Part shown: piece by piece, positions 3,040 to 52,552 of the stretch
Layout of the letters: each line of letters begins with the position of its first letter
Numbering within the stretch: position 1 is the stretch's first letter
Origin: JAZDEY01 sp043808325 [NCBI: Candidatus Eiseniibacteriota bacterium]
GTDB taxonomy: Bacteria; Arandabacterota; Arandabacteria; Arandabacterales
Assembly (NCBI GenBank): GCA_043808325.1
Contig: JAZDEY010000034.1
Span: 1-64,000, forward strand
Length of the DNA: 64,000 bases
Direction: 5' to 3'
Notes under the pieces: model-generated
Seen by the model: the letters and a program-made list of their open reading frames with translations, nothing else
Databases searched by the model: none
Told to the model about the DNA's origin: nothing
Program-made: the position numbers and the translations under genes

Positions 3040-6000
3040 TTGGCAATTGCAAACACCAAGGCAAGCGATGTAATAGCGAGGCTCGCCCGGGTAAGACGGT
3101 CAACTCTGGCCGTTGGGGTCCTGACGGCGGGGGTCCAGGCTGCGGTCGTCGTCGGTGTGGCCTGGCTTGTTCTCTCGTTGCTTGACATGGGATTCGGTAT
3201 GGTAGGACTCGTCTTGAGGATCATTGCAGTGTCGTTAGGGATCCTCGCTTTGGCCGCTCTGGGCTACAACCTCTTCCGGGTCTTCAGGGTCTCACATTCC
3301 ATAAGGAGCTACGCTGCGCGGGTCGGCCGGGAGCTTAAGGAGATCGGGCTTGATTTGGTGACCATCCTGGATCTCGCCGAGATCGATAACAGCAAGTTCG
3401 GCTACTCCGAAACGCTGATCGCGAGGGCAATCGATCAAATCTCGGAACGCGTGAAGCACTTTGACCTCGCAGCCAGCGTGAGGAAGAGATATCTGGTCCT
3501 ATATTCCATCCCGCTTGCGGGCATGCTTGTGGCGGGTCTCATGTGGTGGCAGCTTGACGGCGGCAGTTTCGCATATTCGCTGGCGAGACTCCAATACTTC
3601 ATGGGTCTCTCGGGCCGGAGCGGAATCCTTATCTCGATTGAGCCCGGCGACGGCGAGATCCTTGCGGGTTCGGGCCTAGACGTGGGCGCCGAGATAAGAG
3701 CCTTTGCAAGGCAGGTTCCCAATCTCCACGTCATTATAGATGGCGAAGAGCGGGTGTACGGCATGGAGCGTGCCGACTCCGGCGCCGCGCGGGGACACGC
3801 TCGTTTCATGAGCACACTGGCCAAGGTCGACAGGGACTTGACCTATTTCGTGACCCTCGCCGACGAGCAGACGCGCCTCTTCCGGGTCTCCGTCAAAGAG
3901 GAACCCAGAATAACCACCGGCAAGATAACCCTGGTCTATCCCACCTACACAGCGCTTGGCTCCGAGACACTCCCCCAGGGCAACTGGGACTTGAGTGCGC
4001 CCTTCGGTACCGAGGCCAGCTTTCAGCTTACTGCAAACTGCGTTCCCGAAAGCGCCTGGATATCCCTAATCGGCGAAGGAGGTAAGACCTGGGGCCGGCC
4101 CCTGCGCGCGCTCGGCGACTCGATGGCCGCGACCCTAAGGCTCACGCAGGACTTGGGTCGGGACTTCGGTTACACCTTGGAGTTCATAGCCCGGGGAGGG
4201 CTCCGCGCCAGGTCACATGGGCCGCACACCGCCACGGTTGTCGCCGATAAGCCCCCGTTTGTGCGGATCGAAAGCCCGGGCAGAGAGATCATGCTCGAAG
4301 CCGACATGCTGCTGCCGCTCTCGGTAGTGGCCCTGGATGACTACGGCATCTCCATGATGAAGCTCTACTATGAGTTCAAGGGTGGGAAGGGTGAGGTGCC
4401 GCTTGAATACCACGGCAAAGCCCAGGCGAGATGCGACTATACCTGGGACTTGACCCAGGTGGATGTTTTTCCCGGGGACGCGGTGTCCTACTATGTCGTT
4501 GTCGCCGATAACGATGCCCTGACCGGTCCCAAGCATGCGAGGACCGATGTCTATACGGCGCGGGTTCCGACCATCTACGATGTCTATGAGGAAGTCGAGA
4601 AACAGCAGAATGAGGGTGTCCAGGATCTTGAGGAGGTCGCCGACAAGGCCGAGCAGCTCAAGAAGGACCTCGAACAGGTCGCGGAGGACATGAAGAAGCA
4701 GACCCAGAAGGGGAGCGAGCTGGGATGGGAGCAGGAGCAGACGATCAAGCAAAATCTGGCCCAGCAGGAAGATGTTGCCAAACGGTTGGATGAGATCTCC
4801 TCTTCACTGGACGAGACCCTTGACCTGATGAATCAATCGAGTCTCGTCAACTTCGACATCATCGATAAGATGGAAGAGATCCGGCAGCTGCTTTCTGAGG
4901 TCGCAAACGAGGACATGAGGAAAGCCATCGATAAGATGCGAGAAGCGATGTCCAAACTCTCGCCTGAAGAAATCCGGGCCGCCATGGAGAACATGAACCT
5001 CACCCAGGAGGACCTCTTAAGGAAGCTGGACCAGACGATCGCGCTCCTGAAGCGCATGCAGGCCCAGCAGAAAATGGAGGCGGTCCTCAATCTGGCCAAT
5101 ACGATCGCCGAGGGGCAGAAGGATGCCAATGACCTCTTGCGCGACGGCAAGAACCAGGAAGCCCAGGCTAAGGAGCAAGGCTTGGCCGGGGACACTGCAA
5201 CCCTCAAGGACATGATGAAGCAACTCGAGGAGTTGCTTAAGGCGCAGGGCAATCCTGTCGCGGATCAGGTTGAGCAGGCGAGCCAGTTCATGGACGCAAG
5301 CAAGATTCAGGAATCCATGGCCTCGATGCTCTCCCAGATGGCCGGCGGGAAGATGTCATCGGCGGCCCAGGAGGGGGAGAAGACGGAAGCGAACCTTTCC
5401 CAGCTTGCCAGCATGCTCAAGGCCGCAAGCGAGAGCCTCTCGAGCGATGAGCGCCGGCAGATCCTTGAGGCCTTGAAAAGCACGATGAACGGGCTGAGGG
5501 ATATCTCCGAGCGGCAGGAGGGCGTGCTTGCGGCGCTCCAAGATTCACGGGCCGACGTCTCGATCGCCGAGCTCGCCAGGCAGGAGATGGTCTACAAGGA
5601 GGCCCTCGATAGGATTGCGGAGGACATGTTCGAGCTCTCTCAGAAGAGCCTCTTCGTAAGCCCCACGCTTGGCCGGGCGATCTTGAGGATCGGGGAGGAG
5701 ATCGAAGGCGCCTCCGAAGAGCTTACCCGGGGAGCAGGCAGGGACGCCAAGGGCAGTATCAAGACCTCTATGGGCCAGCTGAACCAGATGGTCGCGGGGC
5801 TGATGGATGCGATGGATAAGGCATCGTCCTGCTCGTCTCCCAGCGGCCTCGCGGAGGCCTTCGACAGTCTCGAGAACATGTGCTCGATGCAGCTTGGGAT
5901 AAATCAGGGAACGCAGCAGATGATGAACGGCGGCGAGCAGGGGCTGAGCATGGAAGCGCGGGCCCAGATGTCAAGGCTTGCGGCGCAGCAACAGATGGTC

Positions 6001-16654: not shown

Positions 16655-18028
16655 TTAATCCAGATAGCCGAGGCTCTTCAGGATCTTCCAGCGGCCGCTC
16701 TCGGTGGCAGATGGGATTGGGGCAGGATGGAGCCCTCCCGGGGCGATCCAGTTGGAGAGCAGCGTGTCGAGCCCGGCAGCCCCCTCGGGGTTCGATGGAT
16801 GAAGATTCCGGGTCTCACCGGGGTCGGCCTTGAGGTCATAGAATTCCTTGGTCAGCGTAGCCGGCGGGTCCTCTCGCCAAACCAGCTTGGCGCTCCCCGT
16901 CCTTATGGCGTGGCGCGGCAGGCACTTCTCGGGAAAGGGGAAGGTCTCCGAAAACGCATAATCGGTGGTCGCCTCAGCCGTACCCCGGACCAGCGGAATC
17001 AGGCTCTTACCTTCGACCTCAGGCGGGCACGCTATCCCCAGCGCCTCGAGGATGGTCGGGAAGATGTCGATGCTCTGGACCAGGCCCGCTACGCGGCGCC
17101 GCGCGGCGTCAATTGACGGGATACGCAGCACCAGCGGGATCAAAATGCATTCCTCGTAGAGCGCAATATCATGCCCGAAGTAGTATTCGTGCTCGTAGAG
17201 AATCTCGCCGTGATCCGAGGTAATGACCACGATCGTATTCTTGAGAAGGTCCAGGGCCGCAAGCTCATCCAGGACCCTGCCCACCTGGACGTCGGTAAAC
17301 GCGATCTCCCCGGCATAGAGCCCTCGAACGTAGTTCAAGTCTGCGTCGGCGAGCGCTATCTTCTCTCGCCAAACCTTCATGGGGAATTCCTCCTGATCGG
17401 TTGCAGGGCCCGTGTAGGCCGTCGAGAATTCCCGGCGATAGCGAGGGGGTGGGTTGTAGGGGCGGTGAGGATGAAACCAATGGATCCACAGGAAGAACCT
17501 GGAATCGCGGTTATCCCTGAGCCAGGTCAGGGCTTCGTCAGTTGTGGGATCTTGCTCGCGCTCGTTCATCTCGCGCCGCACGCGATCGGAGAATGCCAGG
17601 TGGATCGCACGATAACTCTGAAAGCCCTGGTCAAGCCCGTATTTGGCATCAAGCACGTGGCTGCTCAGCATCGCACCGGTAGTGTAGCCGCGGCCTTCCA
17701 AGACCTCGGCGAGGGTGGCGAGCCTGGCATCGACCCGGCTCTCATGGCTTATCGCCTTATGGGTCCTTGGATACATTCCCGTGAATATGGACGTGTGCGA
17801 TGGTAAGGTCTCGGGTGACTGGCAGACAGCCTGCTCAAAGACGACGGCATCCTTGGCGAAGGCATCTATCCTCGGGCTTGTCGGTCTCTGGAACCCGTAG
17901 CAGCCGAGGTAGTCAGCTCGCAGGGTATCTATAGTTATGACAATCACGTTGAGACCGGGCTTCTTGCCGCAGCCGGCGACGAGCAGAGCGGCCAGTGCGC
18001 CCAGCGCGACGTACTTTCTAAACTTCAA
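16655..18028 (-). CDS. Sulfatase-like lipoprotein (alkaline phosphatase superfamily)
   Basis: The 457-residue protein starts at TTG with GAGGAGG upstream. It carries a lipoprotein signal (LVAGC, Cys20) and then a sulfatase/phosphodiesterase domain: VIVITIDTLRADYLGCYG (metal site), SPETLPSHTSIFTGMYP (nucleophile region), VVITSDHGEILYEH (metal site) and a C terminus ending KSLGYLD. At the position where sulfatases have the Cys or Ser that becomes formylglycine (CxPSR) this protein has Thr (TLPSH). It therefore may be a phosphatase or phosphotransferase rather than a true sulfatase. It is one of four paralogues in the window. Confidence 0.85.
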   Translation of the reverse strand: MKFRKYVALGALAALLVAGCGKKPGLNVIVITIDTLRADYLGCYGFQRPTSPRIDAFAKDAVVFEQAVCQSPETLPSHTSIFTGMYPRTHKAISHESRVDARLATLAEVLEGRGYTTGAMLSSHVLDAKYGLDQGFQSYRAIHLAFSDRVRREMNEREQDPTTDEALTWLRDNRDSRFFLWIHWFHPHRPYNPPPRYRREFSTAYTGPATDQEEFPMKVWREKIALADADLNYVRGLYAGEIAFTDVQVGRVLDELAALDLLKNTIVVITSDHGEILYEHEYYFGHDIALYEECILIPLVLRIPSIDAARRRVAGLVQSIDIFPTILEALGIACPPEVEGKSLIPLVRGTAEATTDYAFSETFPFPEKCLPRHAIRTGSAKLVWREDPPATLTKEFYDLKADPGETRNLHPSNPEGAAGLDTLLSNWIAPGGLHPAPIPSATESGRWKILKSLGYLD

Positions 18029-20083: not shown

Positions 20084-20202
20084 GGTGGACCGGCGAGAAT
20101 CTCACGCTGTGGTTTCACATAGGGCAACCTCGGCATCCTGGGAATCGGCCCGGTGTCTCGACGTGACCTGTCAGCGATGATACCACGTTAGGCTTGTGCT
20201 CC

Positions 20203-20228
20203 AGGACAAGGATGGGTATGCTTGTCCT
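20203..20228 (+). promoter_or_regulatory. 8-bp hairpin touching the GTG start of the next gene
   Basis: AGGACAAG (20203-20210) and CTTGTCCT (20221-20228) pair perfectly around a 10-nt loop, and the GTG start at 20229 follows at once. In mRNA this would bury any ribosome-binding site, so it may control initiation, or the true start may be elsewhere. Confidence 0.4.
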
Positions 20229-22046
20229 GTGAAAATCTCATTTGATTTCAGAGTTATCGAGGCTGGCACAAGGAGGGGGTCTGGCCGGGGCCGGAGGGTA
20301 TTCGCCATCGCCGCGCTCCTGGCGGCGGGGTTGTTGACATTCTGCGCTTCATGCTCCAAGCCCCCAGCGAAACCCAATGTGGTCCTAATTGTTATGGATG
20401 CGCTGCGCCCCGACTATCTCGGTTGCTACGGCTGTGACCGGCCGACGTCCCCACACATAGATGATCTCGCCCGCCAAGGCATCCTCTTTGAGAACGCCTT
20501 CACCCATGCGTCGTGGACCAAGCCTTCGTTCGCGAGCTTGCTGACCTCGCTCTACCCCTTCCAGCACGGCGTGGTGGATTGGGAATCGGTAATGCCTGAT
20601 ACCATATCCACCCTGCCCGAGGTTCTGCGGCAGAACGGGTACAGTACATCGGGCGTCATCAATATGCTCGGCATCACCGGTGAGTTCAAAGTCACCAAGG
20701 GGATAGACAAGCTGAGTGAAGCCCCCAAGGGCGAGCTGAACGCCACCCGGATCACCGATACCGCTCTCGCCCTGATCAAGAACTCATCCACTCCCTTCTT
20801 TATTCTGATCCACTATTACGATACCCATTGGCCGTATAAGCCTCCGCCCGAGTACCTCGAATTGGTCCGCAGAACGGATGATCCCAATCCATTTGCCTCG
20901 AGAGCAGCCGCGCGCGCGGAGCGCAACGAGAGGCCGTCCCAGGAATACATAGACCGCCAGAGTCTGCTTTATGCCGCTTGCGTGAAGTACGTCGATGACG
21001 AGATCGGGAGGTTGGTGGAGTCTCTGGATAGGATCAGCCCGCGCTCGGAGACCGTCGTCATTATCACTGCCGACCACGGGGAAGCCTTCTGGGAGCACGG
21101 GGCACGCGCTCACGGCACAGACCTCTACGACGAAGCGATACGGGTTCCTCTCATAATCCATTATCCTGCTCGGTTTCACAAGACACGCAGAATTGAATCA
21201 CTGGTGCGGCACATCGATCTAATGCCTACCATCCTCGAGCTCACGGGGGCAACCGACAGCGGTCACCGCGAAGGCCTGAGTCTGGTCGGGCTTATTGAGA
21301 ACGCCAAGCGAACCGGAGGGGGCGGTAAGTTTCTTCCTGCGAGTTGCGCCTTGAGCGAACTCAACCTCAGGAGGGTGCCCGACCTTAAGTCGATACGCAC
21401 GGCTAATAGGAAGATCATAGTGGAGCCGGCAACCTCGGTGGTTCAACTCTACGATGTGATAGGCGATCCCGGCGAGACCACCAACCTGTGGCCAGGGCTC
21501 TTCGGGCCCCGTGATTCCCTCTTCGAGATGGTGAGCAAGATTCCCGGCGCAAGCCTGAACGGCTGGCGAGTCGGTCTCACGGGGTTGGACACAACCAGCG
21601 CCGTTGCCGTGCGAGTGAGCGTCCTGGATGGGGGGCGGCTGCTCCTGGCCCGGAAAGTGACCGCCCCCGGGGACGTCAGCCTGGAGGTCGATGCTGACAG
21701 CTCCACACTCAATGTGAAAGCAAGACCGGCCGGTCTCCAAATCCTGCTCTTCGATTGCGTTCCGCAGGATGCCCGAATCACCGTCGAGATCACTGCTCGC
21801 GGCACCCCGCTTCCCGCGGCGATCTACACCGGCATGCAGGGGCGAGGTACGCCTGGCGCAACGATTAGGCTCGATCCCGAGAGCAGCCGCGGACTGCCCG
21901 GGACTTTCCAGCAATTCCGCGCGTCCTCACAGCCGGGTGCATTTGTCTGGTGGTCGCCTGGTGAAGCAATCGGCAAGCCCGGCAAGGAAGTGACGCTTAC
22001 GCCGGAGGAGACCAAACGGCTCCGGGCACTCGGATACATCCAGTGA
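20229..22046 (+). CDS. Sulfatase-like exported protein with C-terminal beta domain
   Basis: This protein of about 605 residues has an N-terminal hydrophobic segment ending in a Cys pair (a possible but non-ideal lipobox, FCASC). The alkaline-phosphatase-superfamily domain shows VVLIVMDALRPDYLGCYG, HASWTKPSFASLLTSLYPFQHGVV and VIITADHGEAFWEHG. Thr replaces the formylglycine Cys (TKPSF), and Phe replaces the Arg of CxPSR. A C-terminal domain of about 190 residues with low-identity beta structure ends in TKRLRALGYIQ. It is closely related to the broken gene at 22092-23861 and to 46577-48370. GTG 20229 is chosen as start because the signal sequence then begins with a normal positively charged stretch; GTG 20196 is also possible. 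Confidence 0.8.
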   Translation: MKISFDFRVIEAGTRRGSGRGRRVFAIAALLAAGLLTFCASCSKPPAKPNVVLIVMDALRPDYLGCYGCDRPTSPHIDDLARQGILFENAFTHASWTKPSFASLLTSLYPFQHGVVDWESVMPDTISTLPEVLRQNGYSTSGVINMLGITGEFKVTKGIDKLSEAPKGELNATRITDTALALIKNSSTPFFILIHYYDTHWPYKPPPEYLELVRRTDDPNPFASRAAARAERNERPSQEYIDRQSLLYAACVKYVDDEIGRLVESLDRISPRSETVVIITADHGEAFWEHGARAHGTDLYDEAIRVPLIIHYPARFHKTRRIESLVRHIDLMPTILELTGATDSGHREGLSLVGLIENAKRTGGGGKFLPASCALSELNLRRVPDLKSIRTANRKIIVEPATSVVQLYDVIGDPGETTNLWPGLFGPRDSLFEMVSKIPGASLNGWRVGLTGLDTTSAVAVRVSVLDGGRLLLARKVTAPGDVSLEVDADSSTLNVKARPAGLQILLFDCVPQDARITVEITARGTPLPAAIYTGMQGRGTPGATIRLDPESSRGLPGTFQQFRASSQPGAFVWWSPGEAIGKPGKEVTLTPEETKRLRALGYIQ

Positions 22047-22091
22047 ACACAGCCGGGTCAGGTCTGATCGATTGCCCGCAACGCAGCCGGT

Positions 22092-23861
22092 CTACTGAAG
22101 ATAGCCCAAGGACCTGAGGAGTTGCTTCTCTTCGGAAGTGAGCGGCACCCGCTTGCCACGGCGGCGCATCTCCTCGCCCGGTAGCCACCAGATGAACATC
22201 CTGGGGGCGTCCGACTGCAGCTGTTCCTGGTAGGCATCAGGTAGCCCGCGGGCCTCGGTCAGGCTCACAGGAAACGCTTCGCCGACGGTGTTCTGTCCGC
22301 TCTTGCCGACATAGATTGTGCCGGGCTCTGGCCTGCCTTCTGCAAGCACCTTGAAGATTACCGCCGCGCCCTTCGGCTCAGTATCGAAGAAAACTGTGCC
22401 GGGGCTCTTCGGGGCTATCGTGATCTTGACGGAGGTACTGTCCTGGGAGGCCGCGGCGACCATTCCTGGATAACCTGCCAGCTTGCCTAGCGTGCTCACC
22501 TGCCCACCGTCCACGCGGGCCTCTACCTCGACCTTGAGGTCAGGGACTCTTCCCGCTAAACTCACCCTCCATCCCCCCAGAGTACTGCCGGCGACCTTTG
22601 CCATCAAGCCAGATAGCGAATCTCCAAATGCAATCCCTTCACCCCAATGATTGACACTCTCGTCCGGATCTTCCCGAAGATTGTACAAACTGACCAGTGC
22701 CGTTGCCGGCTCCACGATCAGTTTCCAGCCGGCAGTACGCAGCGACTTGGTGTCCAGGTTCTTCCTTTGCATCACGTCGCTTTCAGAGAGAGCCACGTCT
22801 TGAGGAAACAGGCTTCCGGGGGTCGCGACTCGCTTCCGCTTCTCGATCAGCGGAACCAGGCTTGCTCCCTCGCGATGCTGGTTGTCACGGGCCCCGACCA
22901 GTTCAACCACGGTCGGCAAGAGGTCAACCAGCCTCACCTGCTGATCGATTCTCGCGGGGCCACGATACTTGGCGGGATAACGGATTATCAGCGGGACCCG
23001 CAGGACCTCGTCAAAGAGGTTGGTCCTGTGCGTGCCCTTGCCATGCTCTCAGAGAGCCTCGCCATGGTCGGCGGTCAGGATAAGCACCGTGCTGCGCTCG
23101 AGTCCGGCTTTACGCAGAAAGGCGACCAGCCTGCCGATGTTGTCGTCGACGTACCTTATCGAAGCGCTGTAAAGCAGTCTTTGCCGCTCTGCTAACATCT
23201 GGGACGGCGCCGACCCTTCCTCGTCGTACGATTCCGCGGACGAGCCGATCGGGCTCGTCTCGCCCGGCTTGAGGACAAGGTCGACATACTTAGCCGGCGC
23301 CGGGTAGGGCCAATGGGTATTGAAATAGTGGATCATAATGAAAAACGGCTTGGAGGATTTCCCAATGAGATCTATAGCATCATCAGTCATCAAGGCGGCA
23401 TCGCGGAGATACTTGGGGTATTCCTTCCTCTCGTCTATGCCCTGGGTCACGTTGAACGACCCCGCAATTCCGAACATGGTGATCAGGCTCATCGTATGGT
23501 AACCGTGGCTTCGGAGTATCTCGGGCAGCGTAACAATCGTATCGGACATCACGGCTTCCCAGTCCACTACGCCGTGCTGAAACGGATACAGCGAGGTCAG
23601 GAAGCTTGCAAATGAAGGCTTGGTCCAGGAGGCATGCGTTATGGCCGTCTCGAAAAGGGCACTTTCGCCGGCCAGGCTGTCGATGTTAGGCGACGTGGGA
23701 CGATCGAACCCGTAGCAGCCCAGAAAATCAGGCCGGAGGGCATCAACGACAATGAGCACTACGTTGGGGTTGCGCGGTTGCCTGGAGCAGGAGACCAGGA
23801 GCAGGCAGGCTGCCACCGAGATGAGAAACCCGACACAGCCGGGAAAGCGAGGACCTCTCAT
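22092..23861 (-). pseudogene. Sulfatase-like gene interrupted by one in-frame TGA
   Basis: Two pieces in the same reading frame (23861 to 23049, and the continuation to 22092) together give a 590-codon protein collinear with the 20229 and 46577 paralogues. The break is a single TGA at 23049-23051 between GEAL and EHGKGTHRTNLFDEVLRVPL. The paralogue reads GEAFWEHG there, so the lost codon is Trp (TGG to TGA). Everything else is intact: signal peptide with LLVSC, WTKPSFASFLTSLYPFQHGVV, and the C-terminal EEKQLLRSLGYLQ. UGA is an ordinary stop in neighbouring genes, so recoding genome-wide is excluded. A recent nonsense mutation, strain variation or a sequencing error are the options. Confidence 0.85.
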
Positions 23862-44807: not shown

Positions 44808-46577
44808 ATGAGCCTCGCCAGCCAGCCACATGCCACCGCACCGGCCGATATCCCCCGGAGACGTCTTGATTGGCCGGCGATCGGGATGCTGGCGTTGGCC
44901 GCCGCATATTCGCTGTTCCTGGGGTGGAACTTCGCCCCTGCGGTTGCGGCGTTCGATGAACACGGGTACTACGCCCAGGGCAGTCTCCTTGCGGCGACCG
45001 GGAAGCTCTACTTCGTGCCCGAGTCACCGACTCAGTACATCGGGCAACACTGGTTCAGCACACTTGACGGCCGCTACTACAGCCGCCATTCGCCGGGGCT
45101 TGCGGTTGTGGTTGCGCTGATCTTCCGCACGCTAGGTCCTGATGCCAGCTTCGCGGTCAACCCCCTGCTGGCGGTGCTCGGTCTTGTGGGCATTTTCCTC
45201 CTGGTGCGCAGCCAACTGGCAGGTGGGTGGGGTCTCGGTGCGGCCCTGCTCCTTGCGGCCAACCCGACCTACAATGCCCATGCCATCGCCGGGGATGCGC
45301 ATATGTCAGTCACCGTCCTAATGCTATGGGGCACTTATCTTCTCTTTCGATGGCGCCAAGGTGGTGAGATCGGACAAGTACTTGTGGCCGGGCTGCTGCT
45401 CGGCTGCGTGCCTGCGCTGCGCCCCCCAGATGCACTCTACGGCCTCGGTATCGCTCTTTTCCTCTTGATGTCCCTGCGAGCCCATCCGCATATCTTACGC
45501 CACTACGCGGCTGCCGGGGCTGCGGTGATGATTCCCATCATCCCGTTCCTGGCATACAACCATATGTCTTTTGGCGCATTCTGGAAGACGGCCTACGGCC
45601 TTACCAATGAACAGACCGCCTTCTCATTCCAATATCTGCAGCAGCACCTTCCGCAATATCTGGGAAACCTGTTGCGGAACGATGGCGCGGGGTTGTTCTT
45701 TCCGCTTGGCTGCGTCGGCATGGTCGTGATGGCAGCTCGCAAGCGGACACGTGCGCTCGGCTGGAGCATGCTGGCTCTGATCGTGCCGGTCAGCCTGCTC
45801 TACATGGCCTACTACTGGGCGCCGCGCGTGCCGGCTTCTCTCACTATGCGGTTTCTGCTGCCCACGATTCCCCTGTACATCTTGGCGGGTCTCTGGCTGA
45901 TCTGCTTGGTGACGCGTTCGCTGGGGAAAAAGCGACGCCTGGCGATTGCGGCGACACTTGTCGCCCTGCATCTGGCTTGGGGTGTCCCGAAGAGCTTCAC
46001 GCAGTCTCGATCCGAGTACTACCACAAATCCTTGATGAGAGCGGCTTCGGTGGGGTTGGAGGCCAGCGTGGCCGATGGCAGTGTGATCATTGCAAACCCG
46101 GGAGTGCTTCAGCACCTGGACTTCTTGCGGCACTGGCGCCTGGCTGACCCGATGCTTGTGGCGGGCGCTCGGGGCTCAGCCGGCAGGAAGTCAGCTCAGG
46201 ACCAGCCTCAAAGGACACAGAGCGGGGCGCGCCAGACCTACTCCAGCGTGGATCCGGGCGAGCGTGGCAAAGTTTTCATGGATGATCTGTGGACGTGGGC
46301 GAACGCAAGCCCTGTTTGCCTTGTGGTTTCTGAGTCGCAGATCTCCGGTATGCTTGATCTCTTGGGATACGCTGGCGGCTTCAAGATAATCGGCCGCATT
46401 CCGATGCCAGAGCCCCCGCCTGCCCGGCTGGCGGAGGCGATCGGCTCCCTTAGGGGATCGAAGCAGCATACTGCGCCCGGGCCAGGTTCCCGGCAGGGAC
46501 CCTCCGATCGGGCCGACGCCGCCGAGCTGTCCCGAGGGCCGGAGCCCCTGGTCGTCGCGGAACTGGAGCGTCCCTGA
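44808..46577 (+). CDS. GT-C family glycosyltransferase
   Basis: The 589-residue polytopic protein has the catalytic loop AAFDEHGYYAQGSLLA and the membrane-proximal YYSRHSPGLAVVVAL, typical of PMT/ArnT-like enzymes. About ten helices are followed by a periplasmic domain of about 180 residues, with a low-complexity segment near its end (GSKQHTAPGPGSRQGPSD). It starts 4 bp after mobB, and its TGA overlaps the ATG of the next sulfatase-like gene (TGATG), so the GT and sulfatase-like proteins are co-translated and may act on the same envelope glycan. Confidence 0.82.
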   Translation: MSLASQPHATAPADIPRRRLDWPAIGMLALAAAYSLFLGWNFAPAVAAFDEHGYYAQGSLLAATGKLYFVPESPTQYIGQHWFSTLDGRYYSRHSPGLAVVVALIFRTLGPDASFAVNPLLAVLGLVGIFLLVRSQLAGGWGLGAALLLAANPTYNAHAIAGDAHMSVTVLMLWGTYLLFRWRQGGEIGQVLVAGLLLGCVPALRPPDALYGLGIALFLLMSLRAHPHILRHYAAAGAAVMIPIIPFLAYNHMSFGAFWKTAYGLTNEQTAFSFQYLQQHLPQYLGNLLRNDGAGLFFPLGCVGMVVMAARKRTRALGWSMLALIVPVSLLYMAYYWAPRVPASLTMRFLLPTIPLYILAGLWLICLVTRSLGKKRRLAIAATLVALHLAWGVPKSFTQSRSEYYHKSLMRAASVGLEASVADGSVIIANPGVLQHLDFLRHWRLADPMLVAGARGSAGRKSAQDQPQRTQSGARQTYSSVDPGERGKVFMDDLWTWANASPVCLVVSESQISGMLDLLGYAGGFKIIGRIPMPEPPPARLAEAIGSLRGSKQHTAPGPGSRQGPSDRADAAELSRGPEPLVVAELERP

Positions 46578-48370
46578 TGCCAGTGAAGCTACATCTGCGT
46601 TGTTCAGGCGGGAGAAAGCGTGGATTGCCGGGCGAGATGCCTATCCTCTTGGCAGTGTGCTTGGTCGTCTGTGCGCTGGCCTTGGTCACAATCCCGTTCT
46701 TATCGTGTAACCGCCGAGCCGAACGGCCCAATTTTGTCTTGGTGGTTGTTGATGCCCTTCGTCCGGACTTCCTGGGATGTTACGGGTGCCGTATGCCAAC
46801 CTCGCCCAACATCGATCAACTGGCGGCTGGCGGGGTCGTCTTTGAATCCGCGGTATCGCACGCACCCTGGACCAAGTCGGCGTTCTCTAGCATGCTCACG
46901 GCCCTCTATCCGTTTCAGCACGGCGTTGTCAATTGGGAAGCCGCGATGCCCGATACTATTATGACCCTGCCCGAGATTCTCAGCAGCCAGGGCTACAACA
47001 CCATGGCAGTTGTCAACATGCTTGGCCTTACCGGCGAGTCAAAGGTGATGAAGGGAATCGCCGAGATCAGCGAAGGCCACAAGCACGATCGTGATGCTCC
47101 CGCCACTACCGAGGCTGCGATTGAGCTCATCAAGGCTTCTTCCAAGCCCTTCTTCATAATCATTCACTACTTTGACACCCACTGGCCTTATCGTCCCCCC
47201 CAGGAGTACGTGGACATGATCTCGGGCGCAGGAGCGCCCGACTCCACAGATCCAGCATGTGCGCTCCGGTTGCGTTACGGCGGTTGCGTCAGGTTTGTGG
47301 ATCAATCGATCGGAAGGCTGGTGGCCTTCCTGGATGGGGCTGGGATGCGGAACGACACCGTGCTGCTTATCACCGCCGATCATGGCGAGGGTCTAATGGC
47401 ACACGGCGCAGGGTCCCACGGCACCAACCTCTATGATGAGGCAATACGAGTCCCGCTGATAATCACCTACCCTGCGAGGTACGGCAAGGGACTGCGCATA
47501 GCGGACCAGGTCCGGCATATCGATCTCCTCCCCACAATCGTCGACCTTGCAGGAGCGCGGGACGGCCAGCGAAGAGAGGGGACCAGTCTCGACCCGCTGA
47601 TTCGGAAGGGTTCGAGATCGGCCGACCTGCCGGTGGGGAAGGGGAAGGGGTCGCTGCTCCCGGTGGACTGTGCGCTCTGCGAGATCGGCCTCAGGGACGT
47701 TCCCGAGGCCAAATGCATACGCACCAATGACTGGAAGCTGATTATAGAGCCCTCTACGGCGGCCATTCAGCTCTATGACCTGACACAAGATCGCGGCGAG
47801 CTAACCAATCTTTGGGGCAGTGGCCCGACAGCCGGCGACACCCTGCTCCGTGTGATCGGCCGGGTCCCCGGCGTCAGCGTAAAGGGTTGGCGGATAGGGT
47901 TCACGGGATCGATGCGGACCGGAGGCATCCGGGCTGATGTCCAGGTCGGGAGCGAGGGCCGGATCAGGCTGGCCGAGCCCGTGGCCGGCAGCAACCTGCT
48001 GTCATTCAGACTCAGCGAGGACAGCACCGCCATGGAAGTGATTGCCGGCCCACAGGGTTTGCAAATAATGCTCTTCGAAGTCGAGCCTTCCGATCGGCCC
48101 GTGACCTTCAAGTTCACGGCTGACGGGCAGGATGCCCCGCAAGCTGTCTCGGTCGGTGAGACCGGGGAGCGGCCGTTTGGCCAGGCGTTCGTCCTGACCC
48201 TTGATGACGCCATGGGTCTGCCTCGGGCCTTCGGTCAATCCCGCTCGTCCACAGCGTCCGGAGTTTCCCTCTGGTGGCTCCCGGGAGAGCATCTGCAGCG
48301 CGCCCAAAAGGCGGTCATCCTGTCCCCCGAGGAGCAGAATCGGCTGCGGTCGCTTGGCTATATACACTGA
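46577..48370 (+). CDS. Sulfatase-like exported protein with C-terminal beta domain
   Basis: The 597-residue paralogue of 20229-22046 and 22092-23861 has a hydrophobic N-terminal segment ending FLSC (a possible lipoprotein site). The catalytic blocks are FVLVVVDALRPDFLGCYG, HAPWTKSAFSSMLTALYPFQHGVV and LLITADHGEGLMAHG. The nucleophile site reads TKSAF: Thr in place of the formylglycine Cys, with neither Pro nor Arg of CxPSR. The end is EEQNRLRSLGYIH, the same tail type as its paralogues. It is coupled to the upstream GT-C gene by a one-base overlap. Confidence 0.82.
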   Translation: MPVKLHLRCSGGRKRGLPGEMPILLAVCLVVCALALVTIPFLSCNRRAERPNFVLVVVDALRPDFLGCYGCRMPTSPNIDQLAAGGVVFESAVSHAPWTKSAFSSMLTALYPFQHGVVNWEAAMPDTIMTLPEILSSQGYNTMAVVNMLGLTGESKVMKGIAEISEGHKHDRDAPATTEAAIELIKASSKPFFIIIHYFDTHWPYRPPQEYVDMISGAGAPDSTDPACALRLRYGGCVRFVDQSIGRLVAFLDGAGMRNDTVLLITADHGEGLMAHGAGSHGTNLYDEAIRVPLIITYPARYGKGLRIADQVRHIDLLPTIVDLAGARDGQRREGTSLDPLIRKGSRSADLPVGKGKGSLLPVDCALCEIGLRDVPEAKCIRTNDWKLIIEPSTAAIQLYDLTQDRGELTNLWGSGPTAGDTLLRVIGRVPGVSVKGWRIGFTGSMRTGGIRADVQVGSEGRIRLAEPVAGSNLLSFRLSEDSTAMEVIAGPQGLQIMLFEVEPSDRPVTFKFTADGQDAPQAVSVGETGERPFGQAFVLTLDDAMGLPRAFGQSRSSTASGVSLWWLPGEHLQRAQKAVILSPEEQNRLRSLGYIH

Positions 48371-48472: not shown

Positions 48473-48811
48473 TTAGGGTCCGATGATCTCGTTCAGACCC
48501 TCTACGACTTGGGCTATCTCTTCTGGACTTGCCCTCCCGATTCTCTTGTCGATCCTCTCCACGGCCAATGTCCTGATCTGACTGATCTTCACCCATGACC
48601 GCTTCGGCAAACCCTTTGACTCCAACTCAAGTGTCAAGGGAAACCCTGCCCGCTGAGGCTGACTCGTGATCGCCACTGCTATTACTGTCCCTGAGCGCTC
48701 GTTGAAAACATCCTGACTCAGGATCAGAACCGGCCGCTGCCCTGCCTGCTCGCTTCCCCGAACTGGGTTCAGATCGGCCCAGCGAATCTCACCTCTCAGT
48801 ATTCTGGCCAT
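48473..48811 (-). CDS. mazF: MazF/PemK-family toxin
   Basis: The 112-residue protein has the MazF fold: [29 protein letters not shown] at the N terminus, [10 protein letters not shown] and [20 protein letters not shown]. MazF toxins cleave mRNA at short sequences; the conserved Arg of GQRPV and the Thr/Ser of AITSQ are present. It starts inside the antitoxin gene (16-bp overlap), the usual arrangement for translational coupling. Confidence 0.92.
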
Positions 48812-49038
48812 CGCCCCAACTCCTCCGAAAGCCCCTCCTCGGCCAACGCCTTCTCAAAGCCAGGATCAAGTTTGCTGCACTCGCGAGCCAGGCGACTCTG
48901 GTCAACACGCTCCAGTTTCTCCTTGACTGCTATCTGGATAGCCTGACTCCGATTTCGGAAGACTGCCCTCTTCACCAGCCGGTCCAGCCTTGCTAGGAGT
49001 TTCTCATCGATGGTTATGGCAACCTTTGATCTACTCAT
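48796..49038 (-). CDS. Ribbon-helix-helix antitoxin of the MazF pair
   Basis: The 80-residue protein has an N-terminal ribbon-helix-helix DNA-binding motif ([38 protein letters not shown]) and a C-terminal acidic tail ([14 protein letters not shown]) expected to wrap the toxin. ATG 49038 has AGGGGG upstream; the frame is open 24 codons further but without a good site and across the promoter. It probably represses its own operon through the palindrome at 49057-49068. Confidence 0.88.
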
Positions 49039-49056
49039 ATCGCACCCCCTAGTATG

Positions 49057-49085
49057 ATGATATATCATACCAACAGGAATGTCAA
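49057..49085 (-). promoter_or_regulatory. Promoter and probable operator of the MazF operon
   Basis: On the minus strand TTGACA (49085-49080), a 17-bp spacer and TATCAT (49062-49057) form a near-consensus promoter. The -10 is half of a perfect 12-bp palindrome, ATGATATATCAT (49057-49068), a good site for the ribbon-helix-helix antitoxin. Confidence 0.68.
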
Positions 49086-49174
49086 GCACATTCTGTCCTA
49101 CGGACCCCAACTACGGCTTATACTGCGGCAATCGGGCTGCGCCAGCACCTTGCCTCCCGCCCATCAAGATCCGG

Positions 49175-50527
49175 CTACAGGGGCTTGAGGCCCTTCATTG
49201 CCTCAGCAAGTGCAGCGTCCGGCAACTCATAGTCGGTAAGCTCGCCCCTCAAATAGGAGTCGTAAGCTGCCAGGTCAAAGTGGCCGTGCCCGCTAAAGTT
49301 GAAGAGGATCACCCTCTCCTCGCCCGCGCTCTTCGCCTGAAGCGCCTCGTCAATGACTGCCTTTATGGCGTGGGCCGTCTCGGGAGCCGGCAGGATTCCC
49401 TCGGTCCTCGCAAAGGTGAGCGCCGCCTCAAAGACCTCGATCTGGTTATAGGCCCTCGCTTCAATCAGACCTCGCCTTACGAGCTCGCATAGCAGGGGAC
49501 TGTCACCATGGTACCTGAGCCCGCCCGCATGGATCTTCGCCGGCATGAACTTGTGGCCCAGCGTGAACATGGGCAGCAGGGGCGTGAGCTCCGCGGTGTC
49601 GCCGAAGTCATAGGCGAATATGCCCTTGGTGAGCGTGGGACAGGCGGTCGGTTCAACGGCCACCGCGCGCAAAGCTCTTCCCTCAAGCTTGTCCTTGATG
49701 AAAGGCATGGCGATCCCACCGAAGTTTGAGCCGCCCCCCACACAACCTATCACGACGTCCGGATAGTCACCGGCTTTGTCCATCTGCTTCTTGGCCTCAA
49801 GCCCGATTACGGTCTGGTGGAGCAGCACGTGGTTGAGGACACTCCCGAGCGCATACTTGGTGTCGGCGTCGGAGACTGCATCGTTGACGGCCTCGCTTAT
49901 GGCGATGCCGAGACTCCCGGGAGATTCGGGGTCCTGCTCGAGCATGAGCCTTCCGGCCTGCGTGTCCCGGCTTGGGCTCGGCACCACCTTTGCTCCCCAG
50001 ACCTCCATCATTATCCTTCTATAGGGTTTCTGCTCGTAGCTCACCCGCACCATATAGACCTTGCACTCCAGGCCGAAGATATTGCAGGCGAAACTGAGCG
50101 CGCATCCCCACTGGCCGGCGCCGGTCTCCGTCGTCAGGCGCTTCACGCCCGCCTGCTTGTTGTAGTAGGCCTGCGCGACCGCGGTGTTGGGCTTGTGGCT
50201 TCCGGTGGGACTGACGCCCTCGTACTTGTAGTAGATCCTGGCCGGCGTCTTGAGGGCGACCTCGAGCCTGCGGGCCCGATAGAGGGGAGTCGGCCTCCAG
50301 AGCGTGTAAGCGTCAAGCACCTCCTCGGGTATCTCGATGTATCTCTGGGTGGAGACCTCTTGCTCGATCAGAGCCATCGGGAAGAGGGGCGCAAGATCAT
50401 CGGGACCAATGGGCTTGCCGGTTCCCGGATGGAGCACTGGCCGCATGCCGCCCTCGAGATCGGCAAGTATGTTGTACCACTGCCTTGGAATTTCCTTCTC
50501 CTCAAGCGTGAACTTCGTCGGCTGCAT
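49175..50527 (-). CDS. trpB2: Tryptophan synthase beta chain, TrpB2 type
   Basis: The 450-residue PLP enzyme has the TrpB2 hallmarks: an extended N terminus ([23 protein letters not shown]), [12 protein letters not shown], the PLP lysine in [19 protein letters not shown] and the phosphate loop [10 protein letters not shown]. TrpB2 differs from TrpB1 in lacking features for binding TrpA, and published TrpB2 enzymes use O-phospho-L-serine with indole. No trpA or other trp gene is in the window. ATG 50527 has AAAGGGGGA upstream; a longer open frame is rejected. It follows the serine-kinase-like gene by 26 bp and shares its attenuated transcript. Confidence 0.93.
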
Positions 50528-50553: not shown

Positions 50554-51420
50554 TCAATCGTCGAAATGGAAAGTCGGCTCCTGGTAGAACCTGATCTTCC
50601 TTTCCCGGATCTTTCTCCTTAACACGCGCTCGAGCGCAGTCTTCTTGGCAGCGAGGCTTCTCGAGTCCTTGAGGAAGGCAAGCGGCACCGAAAGCGAGAC
50701 GGCTCGCTTGGGCACGCCGAAGCGTGTTATCCCACTCGGACACTTCTTGCCGCTCAGCGCAAACTCGAGGATGTCGCGCTTGGTGAAGCCTCGGTAGCAG
50801 ATCAACGCCGAGAAGCGCGGGTAGTTTCGGCGAAGGTCATCGAGATTGGTGTAGCTTACCCGATCCACGTTGCGAGCGTCCTTGAGGGCGTCGGTGACGG
50901 CTCTTGCGGCGTCCAGCCGGTCGGTGGCTGATAGGCCGGTCCGGATGACGAAGGCGGCGCCTGTGGGGAGGAGGATCGAGCATGCCGCGTCCCCTGTGAA
51001 GGTCGGGATGAAATCGTGTTGCCGGGTGAGGCGCGCCCGGATTGGAGAGACCTTCGATACCCTGGATGCCCGTCGGAGGCGCTTGGCTATGGCGGCGCCG
51101 CTTAGCCCCTCAACGGCGTGATGCCATGTGGAGAGAACGAGGCCCTCATCGTCAAGGTCGACATCCTGGATGACGACGCATCTCGCTCCGAGGGCGCGCA
51201 GGGCTTCCAACCTGTTGGCCCCATCGAGGAGAAGGTGAGTGGCCGTGCCATGGTCTCGCGCCGCGATGAGAGGGTTCCTGAGACAGCCGTCGGCGGCGAT
51301 CCTCTCGGCGAGGGGCCCTGACCGCGTTGGATCGGGGTCCTCGTGGAGCAGGAGGGAGTTCATAGCAATTACCTGGATGGATGGGAGCTTGCCTATCTCA
51401 AGGTGCGGTTCTCGGTTCAA
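50554..51420 (-). CDS. SbnI/SerK-like free-serine kinase homologue (ParB/Srx fold)
   Basis: The 288-residue protein resembles SbnI of Staphylococcus and archaeal SerK, which phosphorylate free L-serine to O-phospho-L-serine. Matching blocks are [10 protein letters not shown] (the catalytic Glu lies in the same LHE position in SbnI), [23 protein letters not shown] (ParB-like DGxxR), LSTWHHAV and the C-terminal [25 protein letters not shown]. ParB-fold annotation as a transcription regulator would be the main alternative. The start is TTG with AGGAGAGG upstream. It is the first structural gene after the trp attenuator and is followed by trpB2, which would use its product. The family assignment is from remembered sequences, not a search. 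Confidence 0.75.
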
Positions 51421-51464: not shown

Positions 51465-51497
51465 AAATTAAAAAGGCCCGTGGCGTTTCCACGAGCC
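51465..51497 (-). terminator. Second terminator of the trp leader
   Basis: On the minus strand GGCTCGTGG (51497-51489), loop AAACG and CCACGGGCC (51483-51475) form a 9-bp stem with one G-U pair, followed by TTTTTAATTT. It lies after the main attenuator and before the TTG of the kinase-like gene. Confidence 0.78.
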
Positions 51498-51506
51498 TGG
51501 ATATGG

Positions 51507-51538
51507 AAAAAGGCGGGAAACGCCTTGGCGTCCCCGCC
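51507..51538 (-). terminator. Attenuator terminator (stem 3:4)
   Basis: On the minus strand GGCGGGGACGCC (51538-51527) pairs with GGCGTTTCCCGCC (51524-51512), with a small internal mismatch, and is followed by TTTTT (51511-51507). Its 5' arm is the strand that the 2:3 antiterminator would take up. Confidence 0.85.
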
Positions 51539-51568
51539 TCGGGAAGATCTAGCCTAAAGCGGGCACAC

Positions 51569-51628
51569 CTACAATGAGGTGCGCCACCAGTTCAATGTGA
51601 GTGCCAGGCTGAGTGCTTTCGTTTTCAT
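51569..51628 (-). CDS. trpL: trp leader peptide with tandem Trp codons
   Basis: The 19-residue ORF MKTKALSLALTLNWWRTSL has two adjacent Trp codons (51589-51584) five codons before its TAG. E. coli TrpL ends GWWRTS, and the resemblance (WWRTS) extends to the RNA because the same bases begin the 1:2 stem. It is positioned exactly as an attenuation leader: after a promoter and before alternative hairpins, a terminator and the trpB2 operon. No Shine-Dalgarno site is visible, and the predicted transcription start is at or one base before the ATG, so it may be translated leaderless. Confidence 0.85.
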   Translation of the reverse strand: MKTKALSLALTLNWWRTSL

Positions 51629-51635
51629 CAGTGCT

Positions 51636-51664
51636 AGTGTATCACGGGGCCTCTGCGAGTTCAA
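51636..51664 (-). promoter_or_regulatory. Predicted promoter of the trpL-kinase-trpB2 operon
   Basis: On the minus strand TTGAAC (51664-51659), a 17-bp spacer and TACACT (51641-51636) place the start of transcription about at the trpL ATG (51628). No clear TrpR-type palindrome overlaps it. Confidence 0.6.
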
Positions 51665-51757: not shown

Positions 51758-52552
51758 TCACCAGCCGTCATCAAACAATTCAGAACGAACGACAAGCAAA
51801 TCCGCCTGCAGAAGTTCTTTGTGCTCATTGAAGTGAAACTGCACAACATCGTAGAGGCGAAATCCGGCAGCTTGTCCAAACGCCAGGACTTCGGGAAGCA
51901 ACGGAGCCCCTTCGTTGTATTTCTGCACATTGCACTCAATCTGCAGGGCGCGCGCATGTGCGAGGCACCGCGGCGCTCCACGCAAAATGTCGAGCTCAGA
52001 CCCCTGCGTGTCAATCTTGATAAAGTCCGGCATGGGCCAGCCGCGCTCTTCAACCAAACTGTCTAAGCGACGTGTCGTACGGCGGCTGGAAAGCAGGGCA
52101 CCTGATGCATAGAACGCAGTCCGTTCCAGATAAAGGGAATCTCCAGTTCCCGGAGCGTAGGCGCTGGTTTCGTAGAAGGTCTTCTCCACTCCATCGTGCT
52201 CGTCCAATATGGCAATTGCGTATGGCTCCTTACTACGGATTAGGGCGGGTTCATGCTTCGCCATCGCTTCAAACAGAAAGAAGTCAGTGTGCGGCATAAG
52301 AGGCTTGTACACCGTTTGCTGCCCGTCCGGGGAAAATGGATCATTGGCACCAATGTCGTAAAACACCTTCGGGACAAAGCACTGAGTCAGAAACAGCCGC
52401 CAGCGGATCATGCTGTAGAGGCGGGGGTCCTGCAGAAAGGTCAGTATCTGATCGTCATTTCCAAATGTGTTTACGGGGAAGCGCCCTTTCAGCTTGGCAA
52501 TCCCGCGGGAGATGAGTGACATGGATTTGTTGATGGGTGTCTTAGACGGCAT
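51758..52552 (-). CDS. FkbM-family methyltransferase
   Basis: The 264-residue SAM-dependent methyltransferase-like protein has FYDIGANDPFSPDG (SAM-binding region), TTRRLDSLVEERGWPMPDFIKIDTQGSELDILRGA (the FkbM signature) and ALQIECNVQKYNEGAPLLPEVLAFGQAAGFRLYDV. FkbM-type enzymes methylate sugars or hydroxyl groups of polysaccharides and natural products; the substrate here is unknown. It stands alone on the minus strand beside a broken GGDEF gene, and this stretch (51.7-53.0 kb) looks like accessory DNA. The start is ATG without a strong ribosome-binding site. Confidence 0.85.
   Translation of the reverse strand: MPSKTPINKSMSLISRGIAKLKGRFPVNTFGNDDQILTFLQDPRLYSMIRWRLFLTQCFVPKVFYDIGANDPFSPDGQQTVYKPLMPHTDFFLFEAMAKHEPALIRSKEPYAIAILDEHDGVEKTFYETSAYAPGTGDSLYLERTAFYASGALLSSRRTTRRLDSLVEERGWPMPDFIKIDTQGSELDILRGAPRCLAHARALQIECNVQKYNEGAPLLPEVLAFGQAAGFRLYDVVQFHFNEHKELLQADLLVVRSELFDDGW

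What the first reader, a model, noticed from the sequence alone, without database searches (positions are those of the whole stretch)
51465..51664. A complete classical trp attenuator outside the Proteobacteria, in front of trpB2
The minus strand shows in order: a promoter, a 19-codon leader peptide with tandem Trp codons (NWWRTSL, like the WWRTS end of E. coli TrpL), a 1:2 stem starting at the second Trp codon, a 2:3 antiterminator pairing at nine of ten positions, a 3:4 terminator with T5, and a second terminator. All the parts of ribosome-mediated attenuation are present and mutually exclusive. It controls a serine-kinase-like gene and trpB2 rather than a trpEDCBA operon. I know of no such leader on a trpB2 operon.
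Basis: partly seen in the sequence, partly recalled or inferred. Interest (0 to 1): 0.92.

Follow-up and report, generated by a model that had tools for sequence, protein, structure and literature searches.

The report
Tryptophan attenuator controlling an indole-salvage operon
A short RNA switch that appears to sense tryptophan by stalling ribosomes sits in front of a serine-kinase gene and a tryptophan-synthase gene (trpB2) in a little-known bacterial phylum, and the same pairing recurs in relatives, many of which seem to lack the rest of the tryptophan pathway.

Summary
On the minus strand, 51628-51569 encodes MKTKALSLALTLNWWRTSL*. Mutually exclusive RNA helices and two terminator hairpins follow, before an SbnI/SerK-like serine-kinase gene (51420-50554) that the finding's title does not name, then trpB2 (50527-49175). 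Of 16 kinase-TrpB2 gene pairs found (window included), 14 have upstream DNA; 14 of 14 carry an aromatic-codon leader plus hairpin. Eleven leaders have Trp runs. Three, before operons with chorismate mutase and other Phe/Tyr genes, encode Trp, Phe and Tyr (WFWYWYY or WFWCWYY). None of six kinase homologues without TrpB2 seen beside them has leader plus terminator. Of 16 genomes with such an operon (one cut off before TrpB2), 12, one a single 4.1-Mb contig, show no trpA, trpB1, trpC or trpD. Most likely this is a ribosome-mediated Trp attenuator of an operon that makes O-phosphoserine and joins it to indole: tryptophan from salvaged indole. Attenuators outside Proteobacteria are known, so the class is not new. 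The regulated operon, its spread over uncultured phyla, an apparently leaderless leader mRNA and a possible two-terminator relay were not met in my paper searches. All is sequence inference; nothing was measured.

The parts
51659..51664 (-). candidate -35 element TTGAAC
   Evidence: Read by eye; TTGAA(A/C/G), 17-18 nt, then a TA-rich hexamer at the same place in 5 of 5 Krumholzibacteriota-type leaders. The sigma-70 scan found nothing at its threshold.
51636..51641 (-). candidate -10 element TACACT, 7 nt before the leader ATG, so the leader mRNA is probably leaderless
   Evidence: TACACT/TATTGT/TATAAT 4-8 nt before an in-frame ATG and no Shine-Dalgarno seen in 5 of 5; by eye, no transcript data.
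51569..51628 (-). trp leader peptide gene, MKTKALSLALTLNWWRTSL*
   Evidence: WWRTS as in E. coli trpL
51577..51589 (-). segment 1 (both Trp codons and the codons behind them); pairs with segment 2 (pause hairpin)
   Evidence: one pair is C-G, U-G, U-A in window, G001, G020 (by eye on the alignment)
51553..51570 (-). segment 2; pairs with 1 or with 3 (antiterminator)
   Evidence: 2:3 duplex -23.5 kcal/mol, 4 of 1000 shuffles as good; weak in the differently cut test
51527..51540 (-). segment 3; pairs with 2 or with 4
51507..51524 (-). segment 4 and U-run: 3' arm of terminator 1
   Evidence: (hairpin -22.6 kcal/mol, 0 of 200 shuffles)
51482..51500 (-). segment 5: 5' arm and loop of hairpin 2; its loop region (GGAAACGCC) is complementary to part of segment 4 (GGCGUUUCC)
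   Evidence: 4:5 duplex -18.3 kcal/mol, 14 of 1000 shuffles
51470..51483 (-). segment 6 and second U-run: 3' arm of terminator 2
   Evidence: -18.1 kcal/mol, 0 of 200 shuffles
50554..51420 (-). SbnI/SerK-like free L-serine kinase homologue (ParB fold), TTG start; first gene of the operon
   Evidence: PDB 5uje SbnI E 3.9e-14, SerK chains E 0.0013-0.0028; NF033589 E 6e-21, below its cut-off; H-E and DG-x-NR residues invariant in 22 of 22 aligned
49175..50527 (-). TrpB2 (TrpB-like PLP enzyme), second gene of the operon
   Evidence: TIGR01415 675 bits, cut-off 519; frame intact

Best explanation
It is a ribosome-mediated transcriptional attenuator that reads charged tRNA-Trp. RNA polymerase makes the leader and a ribosome starts on the mini-gene, probably at the very 5' end. 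With enough Trp the ribosome runs to the stop codon, covers segment 2, 3:4 forms and transcription stops at terminator 1 (terminator 2 is a backstop or second switch). With Trp-tRNA short, the ribosome stalls on the two Trp codons, 2:3 forms first, and polymerase goes on into the operon. The operon makes a serine kinase, which turns serine into O-phosphoserine, and TrpB2, which joins O-phosphoserine to indole to give tryptophan. In 12 of 16 relatives no trpA, trpB1, trpC or trpD was found, so the indole probably comes from outside: tryptophan starvation switches on indole salvage. Shown: the sequence parts, their recurrence, covariation, gene families, the missing trp genes in relatives. Inferred: stalling, termination, both enzyme activities, the indole source, and that the window's own host lacks the pathway.
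For: Leader and hairpins. 14 of 14 kinase-TrpB2 operons with upstream DNA have an aromatic-codon leader plus hairpin; of 6 kinase homologues without TrpB2 seen beside them, 0 have leader plus terminator. Background 9 of 752. Codon content follows gene content: Trp runs before kinase-TrpB2; Trp, Phe and Tyr before chorismate mutase-kinase-TrpB2-DAHP synthase-prephenate dehydrogenase (G105-107; families searched for G107 only). Trp leaders also stand before trpB2 without the kinase (13 of 21 loci held from two phyla; 4 of 72 TrpB2 loci) and before trpE in G116, G117, G118, G148 (trpE named by family in three). Arms covary: inner antiterminator pair 2 G-C/G-U/A-U, pair 4 U-A/C-G/U-G/A-U. 12 of 16 genomes have no trpA, trpB1, trpC or trpD over cut-off; the controls rang over cut-off in 14, 13, 14 and 14 of 14. 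TrpB2 uses O-phosphoserine (Busch 2014, seen only as cited in PMC11917138 and PMC12727527); SerK makes it (PMC5120207, passages), SbnI too (title in the references of PMC12704722).
Against: No expression, transcript or enzyme data. Whole-leader fold energy is unremarkable (z -1.33). The shuffle test was weak for window (70 of 300), G020 (81), G148 (58), G002 (165) and G001 (44, on a wrong hairpin). In G001 hairpin 1 lacks a T-run and in G080 both T-runs are poor. In G147 and G148 about 516 and 384 nt separate kinase and TrpB2, so TrpB2 may have its own promoter there. The kinase scores far below the curated SbnI and SerK cut-offs, so its substrate is not certain. G117, G118 and G148 have the four other trp genes tested, G116 two of them; there salvage is not the only route. 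8 of 21 TrpB2 loci without kinase in the two phyla, and 68 of 72, failed the leader test.
Confidence: 0.85

Rival explanations
1. Six-segment relay: as above, but hairpin 2 is a second switch. In plenty 1:2, 3:4 and 5:6 form; in starvation 2:3 forms, which frees segment 4 to pair with segment 5 and so also disarms terminator 2.
For: 4:5 complementarity at the same place in 5 of 5 Krumholzibacteriota-type leaders; 14, 252, 21, 249, 11 of 1000 shuffles as good for window, G001, G020, G080, G081. Where segment 4 differs in G081 (GUUCCCGC), segment 5 holds its exact complement (GCGGGAAC), and G081 segment 4 pairs poorly with segment 5 of window, G001 and G020 (-6.1 to -7.9 against -16.0 kcal/mol with its own). 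In G001 only hairpin 2 has a T-run, so hairpin 1 alone could hardly terminate there.
Against: G001 and G080 are not above shuffles; own pairs are not generally the best (G081 segment 4 pairs as well with G080's segment 5; G001 segment 4 pairs better with the window's segment 5 than with its own); five related sequences only; GC-rich arms pair easily; the KSB1-type leaders looked at show one terminator and no relay.
Confidence: 0.4
2. Two separate terminators: a plain attenuator at hairpin 1, and hairpin 2 a constitutive or back-up terminator with no switching of its own.
For: Both hairpins are stable with T-runs in the window.
Against: A strong constitutive terminator would always block the operon; the GAAACG core of the loop region is the same in window, G001 and G020 while the stem differs, though not in G080 and G081.
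Confidence: 0.4
3. Chance mini-ORF plus an ordinary terminator of the upstream FkbM-type gene.
For: The upstream gene 52552-51758 is on the same strand and ends near here.
Against: 14 of 14 operons against a low background; other upstream genes in other groups (by eye); arms covary.
Confidence: 0.02
4. The SbnI-like protein is a DNA-binding ParB-type regulator of trpB2, not a kinase.
For: One SbnI entry is named bifunctional transcriptional regulator and O-phosphoserine synthase; ParB fold.
Against: H-E and DG-x-NR residues invariant in 22 of 22; the O-phosphoserine link explains the pairing with TrpB2.
Confidence: 0.1
5. TrpB2 here makes something other than Trp and the leader only reports Trp as a general starvation cue.
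For: No enzyme data on these TrpB2 proteins.
Against: In G105-107 the pair sits among Phe/Tyr genes behind a Trp/Phe/Tyr leader; 12 of the 16 genomes have TrpB2 and no TrpB1 over cut-off, G149 showing neither.
Confidence: 0.06

Closest known systems
E. coli trp attenuator (trpL; Rfam RF00513 Trp_leader)
   Same: Tandem Trp codons followed by Arg-Thr-Ser (WWRTS; 11 identical bases TGGTGGCGCAC); 1:2/2:3/3:4 alternatives and a U-run (the E. coli mechanism is recalled)
   Different: 17.3 bits against a 41-bit cut-off; controls kinase-trpB2, not trpE onward; no Shine-Dalgarno seen; second hairpin
Actinobacterial trp attenuators (Corynebacterium, Streptomyces; PMC1262725, passages)
   Same: Classical candidate attenuators outside Proteobacteria; one precedes a trpB2A operon in C. 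diphtheriae
   Different: trp operons, that one with trpA; different phylum; no serine kinase mentioned in the passages read
SbnI / SerK free serine kinases
   Same: Sequence relatives by phmmer; shared H-E and DG..R residues in the printed SbnI alignment
   Different: SbnI serves staphyloferrin B, SerK cysteine; here next to TrpB2 behind a Trp leader; below curated cut-offs
TrpB2 of archaea and some bacteria (PMC1854888, PMC11917138, PMC11085991, passages; Hiyama 2014 and Busch 2014 only as cited)
   Same: Same family (TIGR01415); O-phosphoserine use and, for Thermococcus, indole-to-Trp conversion are reported
   Different: Described there in genomes with trpA and often trpB1; here in most genomes tested the only TrpB over the family cut-offs, with a kinase, behind an attenuator
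RF04312 trpB ncRNA motif
   Same: Weak hit with two hairpins (18.8 bits)
   Different: Cut-off of 59 bits not met; no paper on this motif found (listing)

Membership tests
Ribosome-mediated trp attenuator | Short ORF with tandem Trp codons just before genes that make Trp | tested here: met
   (that the genes make Trp is inferred from families)
Ribosome-mediated trp attenuator | Mutually exclusive 1:2, 2:3, 3:4 helices | tested here: met
   complementarity against shuffles; covariation in KSB1-type and other relatives; weak for the window
Ribosome-mediated trp attenuator | Intrinsic terminator with U-run | tested here: met
Ribosome-mediated trp attenuator | Readthrough rises when charged tRNA-Trp falls | not testable with these tools
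   needs expression data
Rfam RF00513 Trp_leader | Covariance-model score over the gathering cut-off | tested here: not met
   17.3 of 41 bits; no gathering hit in the window or in 12 related loci
Rfam RF04312 trpB motif | Score over the gathering cut-off | tested here: not met
   18.8 of 59 bits
T-box leader (considered) | Rfam match | tested here: not met
   no match of any family at gathering threshold
SbnI/SerK serine kinases | Sequence homology to solved SbnI/SerK | tested here: met
SbnI (NF033589) and SerK (NF053625) | Curated equivalog cut-off | tested here: not met
   74.9 of 350 bits and 37 of 380 bits
SbnI/SerK serine kinases | Catalytic Glu and DG..R residues | tested here: met
   H26-E27 and D66-G67-x-N69-R70 invariant in 22 of 22; that this Glu is catalytic (SbnI E20, SerK E30) is recalled
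SbnI/SerK serine kinases | O-phosphoserine formation | not testable with these tools
   needs assay
TrpB2 (TIGR01415, NF009057) | Score over the curated cut-off | tested here: met
   675 of 519 and 756 of 366 bits

The most novel reading that the evidence does not exclude
A leaderless leader mRNA drives a six-segment relay attenuator (1:2, 3:4, 5:6 in plenty; 2:3, 4:5 in starvation) that opens two terminators with a single stalled ribosome. It governs a dedicated O-phosphoserine/indole salvage operon that replaces the whole tryptophan pathway in Krumholzibacteriota, with one-terminator cousins, including a Trp/Phe/Tyr-reading form, across a KSB1-type phylum.
Probability: 0.35. Interest if true: 0.75.

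Novelty: new variant of a known kind. Interest (0 to 1): 0.62.

Why it matters
It ties an uncharacterised ParB-like gene and TrpB2 to tryptophan supply by the cell's own sensor: the leader's codons say what the operon makes. This predicts, testably, that free serine kinase plus TrpB2 is a tryptophan-from-indole module in bacteria that seem to have lost the pathway, and that such bacteria depend on indole from neighbours. It widens predicted Trp attenuation to several uncultured phyla and offers a possible natural two-terminator design.

Tried and rejected
No whole genome is held for the window, so its own trp genes could not be counted. TrpB2 as a query in genome contigs (best 80 kept of 566) gave only 2 of 80 loci with the kinase beside it; phylum searches were needed. 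Elsewhere the kinase query gave 0 of 21 genomes, 1 of 64 (G199, no TrpB2 within the 1.46 kb held downstream) and 0 of 149 (the tool warns that empty answers such as 33 and 37 show nothing). Plasmid hits were 2 distant Bacillaceae ParB-type proteins; viral contigs gave none. The Rfam sobemovirus frameshift, suhB and cobalamin hits are below cut-off and taken as chance. The antiterminator test cut segment 3 short and chose a doubtful stretch in G002 and the second hairpin in G001; redid it for five Krumholzibacteriota-type sequences only. Dropped rows: G083, a partial weak hit with a stop inside; L004 from the counts, its register being ambiguous; G149 from the operon count, its contig ending in the kinase. 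L202 has a visible leader but failed the strict test; L198 passed it on a short overlapping ORF, L175 on its second hairpin. Of the four hits, L004 and L010 carry the same leaders as L181 and L192, so those two counts overlap. G199 has one WW mini-ORF in 500 nt upstream of its kinase but no leader-plus-terminator; of G164 only 90 nt downstream of the kinase are held. The tree kept 28 of 53 proteins tried, the rest lacking the pattern my script used to find the frame.

Full report
WHAT IS THERE. The minus strand of 51664-51465 holds, in order, a possible promoter, a 19-codon ORF MKTKALSLALTLNWWRTSL* (51628-51569), and two hairpins each followed by a T-run. Folded alone, hairpin 1 is -22.6 and hairpin 2 -18.1 kcal/mol; 0 of 200 shuffles do as well for either. 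The two Trp codons and following bases (segment 1, 51589-51577) pair with segment 2 (51570-51553); segment 2 pairs alternatively with segment 3 (51540-51527) over 13 pairs (-23.5 kcal/mol; 4 of 1000 shuffles); segment 3 pairs with segment 4 (51524-51512) as terminator 1. Results the other way: the leader as a whole is not unusually stable (z -1.33; 21 of 200 shuffles), and my first antiterminator test, with segment 3 cut short, showed little for the window (70 of 300), G020 (81 of 300), G148 (58 of 300), G002 (165 of 300) and G001 (44 of 300, on its second hairpin), while G147, G144, G117, G118, G143, G105, G106 and G107 reached 0-1 of 300, G150 8 and G149 16. Segment limits were chosen by eye, which flatters the numbers; its short 5:6 duplex was not above shuffles at 5% in four of five (49 to 121 of 1000).

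WHAT IT CONTROLS. The first gene downstream (51420-50554) is not named in the finding's title. It has no Pfam hit at E 0.001 but matches SbnI (5uje, E 3.9e-14) and free serine kinase SerK and, far below their curated cut-offs, the NCBIfam models of both. In 22 of 22 homologues aligned, H26-E27 and D66-G67-x-N69-R70 are invariant. That the Glu is the catalytic one is recalled; the SbnI paper is not held. The second gene, 26 nt on, is TrpB2 (TIGR01415 675 bits). SerK makes O-phosphoserine from free serine (PMC5120207, abstract and passages); SbnI likewise (title of the cited paper in PMC12704722, passages; that paper's text has no 'tryptophan' or 'trpb'). TrpB2 enzymes use O-phosphoserine (title of Busch 2014 and a statement in PMC11917138, passages; title also in PMC12727527; I did not see the paper itself). 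So the two genes form a sensible pair: one would make the substrate of the other.

RELATIVES. The kinase was sought in 80 genomes of the phylum of G001 (a Candidatus Krumholzibacteriia MAG), 5 of 80 with a match, and 82 genomes of the phylum of G002 (which also holds the genomes of two loci named candidate division KSB1), 17 of 82. With TrpB2 next to it: G001, G020, G002, G105, G106, G107, G116, G117, G118, G143, G144, G145, G147, G148, G150 and the window, 16 in all; in the 15 relatives the gap, counting the kinase stop codon, is 24-85 nt except 516 in G147 and 384 in G148. Two, G116 and G145, are cut off by contig ends inside the leader, showing a hairpin with T-run only. In the other 14, all have a leader with aromatic codons and a hairpin with T-run (in G001 the T-run follows the second hairpin only). 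Eleven have Trp runs, from WW (window, G001, G020, G147) to WWWWW (G150). G149 has a WWWW leader before the kinase but its contig ends there. Of six kinase homologues without TrpB2 seen beside them (G007, G008, G163, G164, G165, G199), none has a WW leader with terminator; G199 has one WW mini-ORF without a terminator, and of G164 only 90 nt downstream are held.

THE CODONS FOLLOW THE GENES. In G105, G106 and G107 the leader seemed absent at first. It lies further up, before a small gene in front of the kinase. For G107 family searches name that gene chorismate mutase (PF01817) and the genes behind TrpB2 DAHP synthase, prephenate dehydrogenase and EPSP synthase; for G105 and G106 the same order, as far as held, is read from sequence by eye. 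The three leader peptides read ...WFWCWYYHISGGRDLSLT* and ...WFWYWYYHISGGRNLSLT* (twice): Trp, Phe and Tyr together, before genes for all three. This is the strongest single argument that these leaders sense what the operon makes. The three genomes are close kin, so they count as one case.

BACKGROUND RATE AND TRPB2 WITHOUT KINASE. A scan of 601,536 strand-bases of the window and 19 loci found 29 WW-ORF-plus-terminator places, 14 of them at these leaders (13 operons and G149; G105 and G106 through an overlapping ORF; G107 missed). In 752 overlapping background 450-nt stretches a slightly looser test rang 9 times. Before trpB2 genes without neighbouring kinase in the two phyla, 13 of 21 loci pass (for the phylum of G002 only the best 30 of 53 listed places were held as loci), among them G080 and G081, whose TrpB2 is 75% and 73% like the window's and whose leaders are of the same classical type (MNGCNSRSYWWCTFT*, MKRANCRINWWCTFP*). 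Of the 78 TrpB2 loci without kinase, 72 had enough upstream DNA and 4 passed (L004 Caldithrix, L010 KSB1, L012 Neomarinimicrobiota, L021 Armatimonadetes, names as); L004 and L010 show the same leaders as two loci. In G116, G117, G118 and G148 Trp-rich leaders with terminators also stand before trpE (trpE named by family in three of the four). So Trp attenuation looks like a common habit of that phylum.

COVARIATION. Across 15 sequences the terminator arms form 90 of 90 standard pairs with changes on both sides; arms were picked for pairing, so the percentage means less than the changes. The inner antiterminator arm (11 sequences) has pair 2 as G-C, G-U or A-U and pair 4 as U-A, C-G, U-G or A-U, all standard; pairs 5 and 6 are standard in 9 and 8 of 11; the outer arm is standard in 11 to 15 of 15 per pair. 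L012 and L021 are distant and may be analogous rather than homologous.

MISSING PATHWAY. Of the 15 genomes plus G149, trpA and trpB1 over cut-off are in G117, G118 and G148 only; trpC and trpD in those and G116; the other 12 of 16 have none of the four, while 14 control genomes rang over cut-off in 14, 13, 14 and 14. G020 is held as one contig of 4,125,935 bases, so there the absence is unlikely to be a gap. The others are of unstated completeness. G080, G081 and the window's host were not tested. The picture is tryptophan from indole taken up from outside.

POSSIBLE RELAY AND LEADERLESS START. In window, G001, G020, G080 and G081 a second hairpin follows. Its loop region is complementary to segment 4: 14, 252, 21, 249 and 11 of 1000 shuffles do as well. 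G081 has a different segment 4 and a matching different segment 5; but its segment 4 pairs equally with G080's segment 5, and G001's pairs better with the window's segment 5 than with its own. In G001 hairpin 1 has no T-run and hairpin 2 has, which makes sense if hairpin 1 only sets the state of hairpin 2. I hold this relay at 0.4. In the same five, a TTGAA-17/18-TA-rich pair ends 4-8 nt before an in-frame ATG and no Shine-Dalgarno is seen (by eye; the promoter scan found nothing at its threshold), so the leader mRNA is probably leaderless; the KSB1-type leaders of G002, G117 and G118 do have one.

AGE. TrpB2 of window, G020, G001, G080 and G081 form one supported group (99/96) in a tree of 28 proteins out of 53 tried. 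The kinase label needs four changes on that tree, at least two on supported branches, so the kinase has been gained or lost more than once or the tree is uncertain (10 of 25 inner branches open). The window genes concerned have open frames.

WHAT IS KNOWN. Trp attenuators in Actinobacteria are in print, a candidate before C. diphtheriae trpB2A among them (PMC1262725, passages; attenuation in Actinobacteria also said in PMC4833913, passages), so 'outside the Proteobacteria' is not new. Rfam models do not reach the window (Trp_leader 17.3 of 41 bits, trpB motif 18.8 of 59) or 12 related loci. Searches of the paper library for TrpB2 with phosphoserine, trp leader peptides with Actinobacteria/Chloroflexi, SbnI with serine kinase, TrpB2 with attenuation or leader peptide, serine kinase with indole salvage, trp attenuators with Bacteroidetes, and Krumholzibacteri/KSB1 with tryptophan (listings only unless said, showing 20 of 39,542 and 12 of 13) showed no report of this operon or its leader; subscription papers are mostly not in that library, and the survey of trp operon regulation by Merino and others (2008, recalled) was not seen.

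Noticed in passing
L108 about 5588-5683; homologous places in L109 and L107: Leader peptide with Trp, Phe and Tyr codons before a chorismate mutase-kinase-TrpB2-DAHP synthase-prephenate dehydrogenase operon (families searched for L107 only).
   Followed up: yes
L169 5060-5191, L170 (minus strand numbering) 5105-5221, L171 5658-5744, L172 413-508: Trp-rich leaders with terminators right before trpE in four genomes of the KSB1-type phylum.
   Followed up: partly
L116 6389-7665; L200: TrpB2 of G143 lies in two overlapping frames and TrpB2 of G119 has an inner TGA. Either sequencing error or decay; described only.
   Followed up: no
L021 about 5700-5995: Trp attenuator-like leader (...LWWWQAHSVCP*) before trpB2 in an Armatimonadetes MAG, with a 9-base antiterminator match CUUCCCAUG/CAUGGGAAG by eye.
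   Followed up: partly
window 48473-49110 (-): Two adjacent small ORFs that look like a MazF-type toxin and a ribbon-helix-helix antitoxin, just beyond trpB2 (by eye, no search).
   Followed up: no
window 51758-52552 (-): FkbM-type methyltransferase gene on the same strand directly upstream of the attenuator (PF05050).
   Followed up: no
window 16655-18028, 20196-23861, 46577-48370: Several related sulfatase-like ORFs (PNVVLIVVDALRPDFLGCYG-type motif) in repeated copies (by eye).
   Followed up: no
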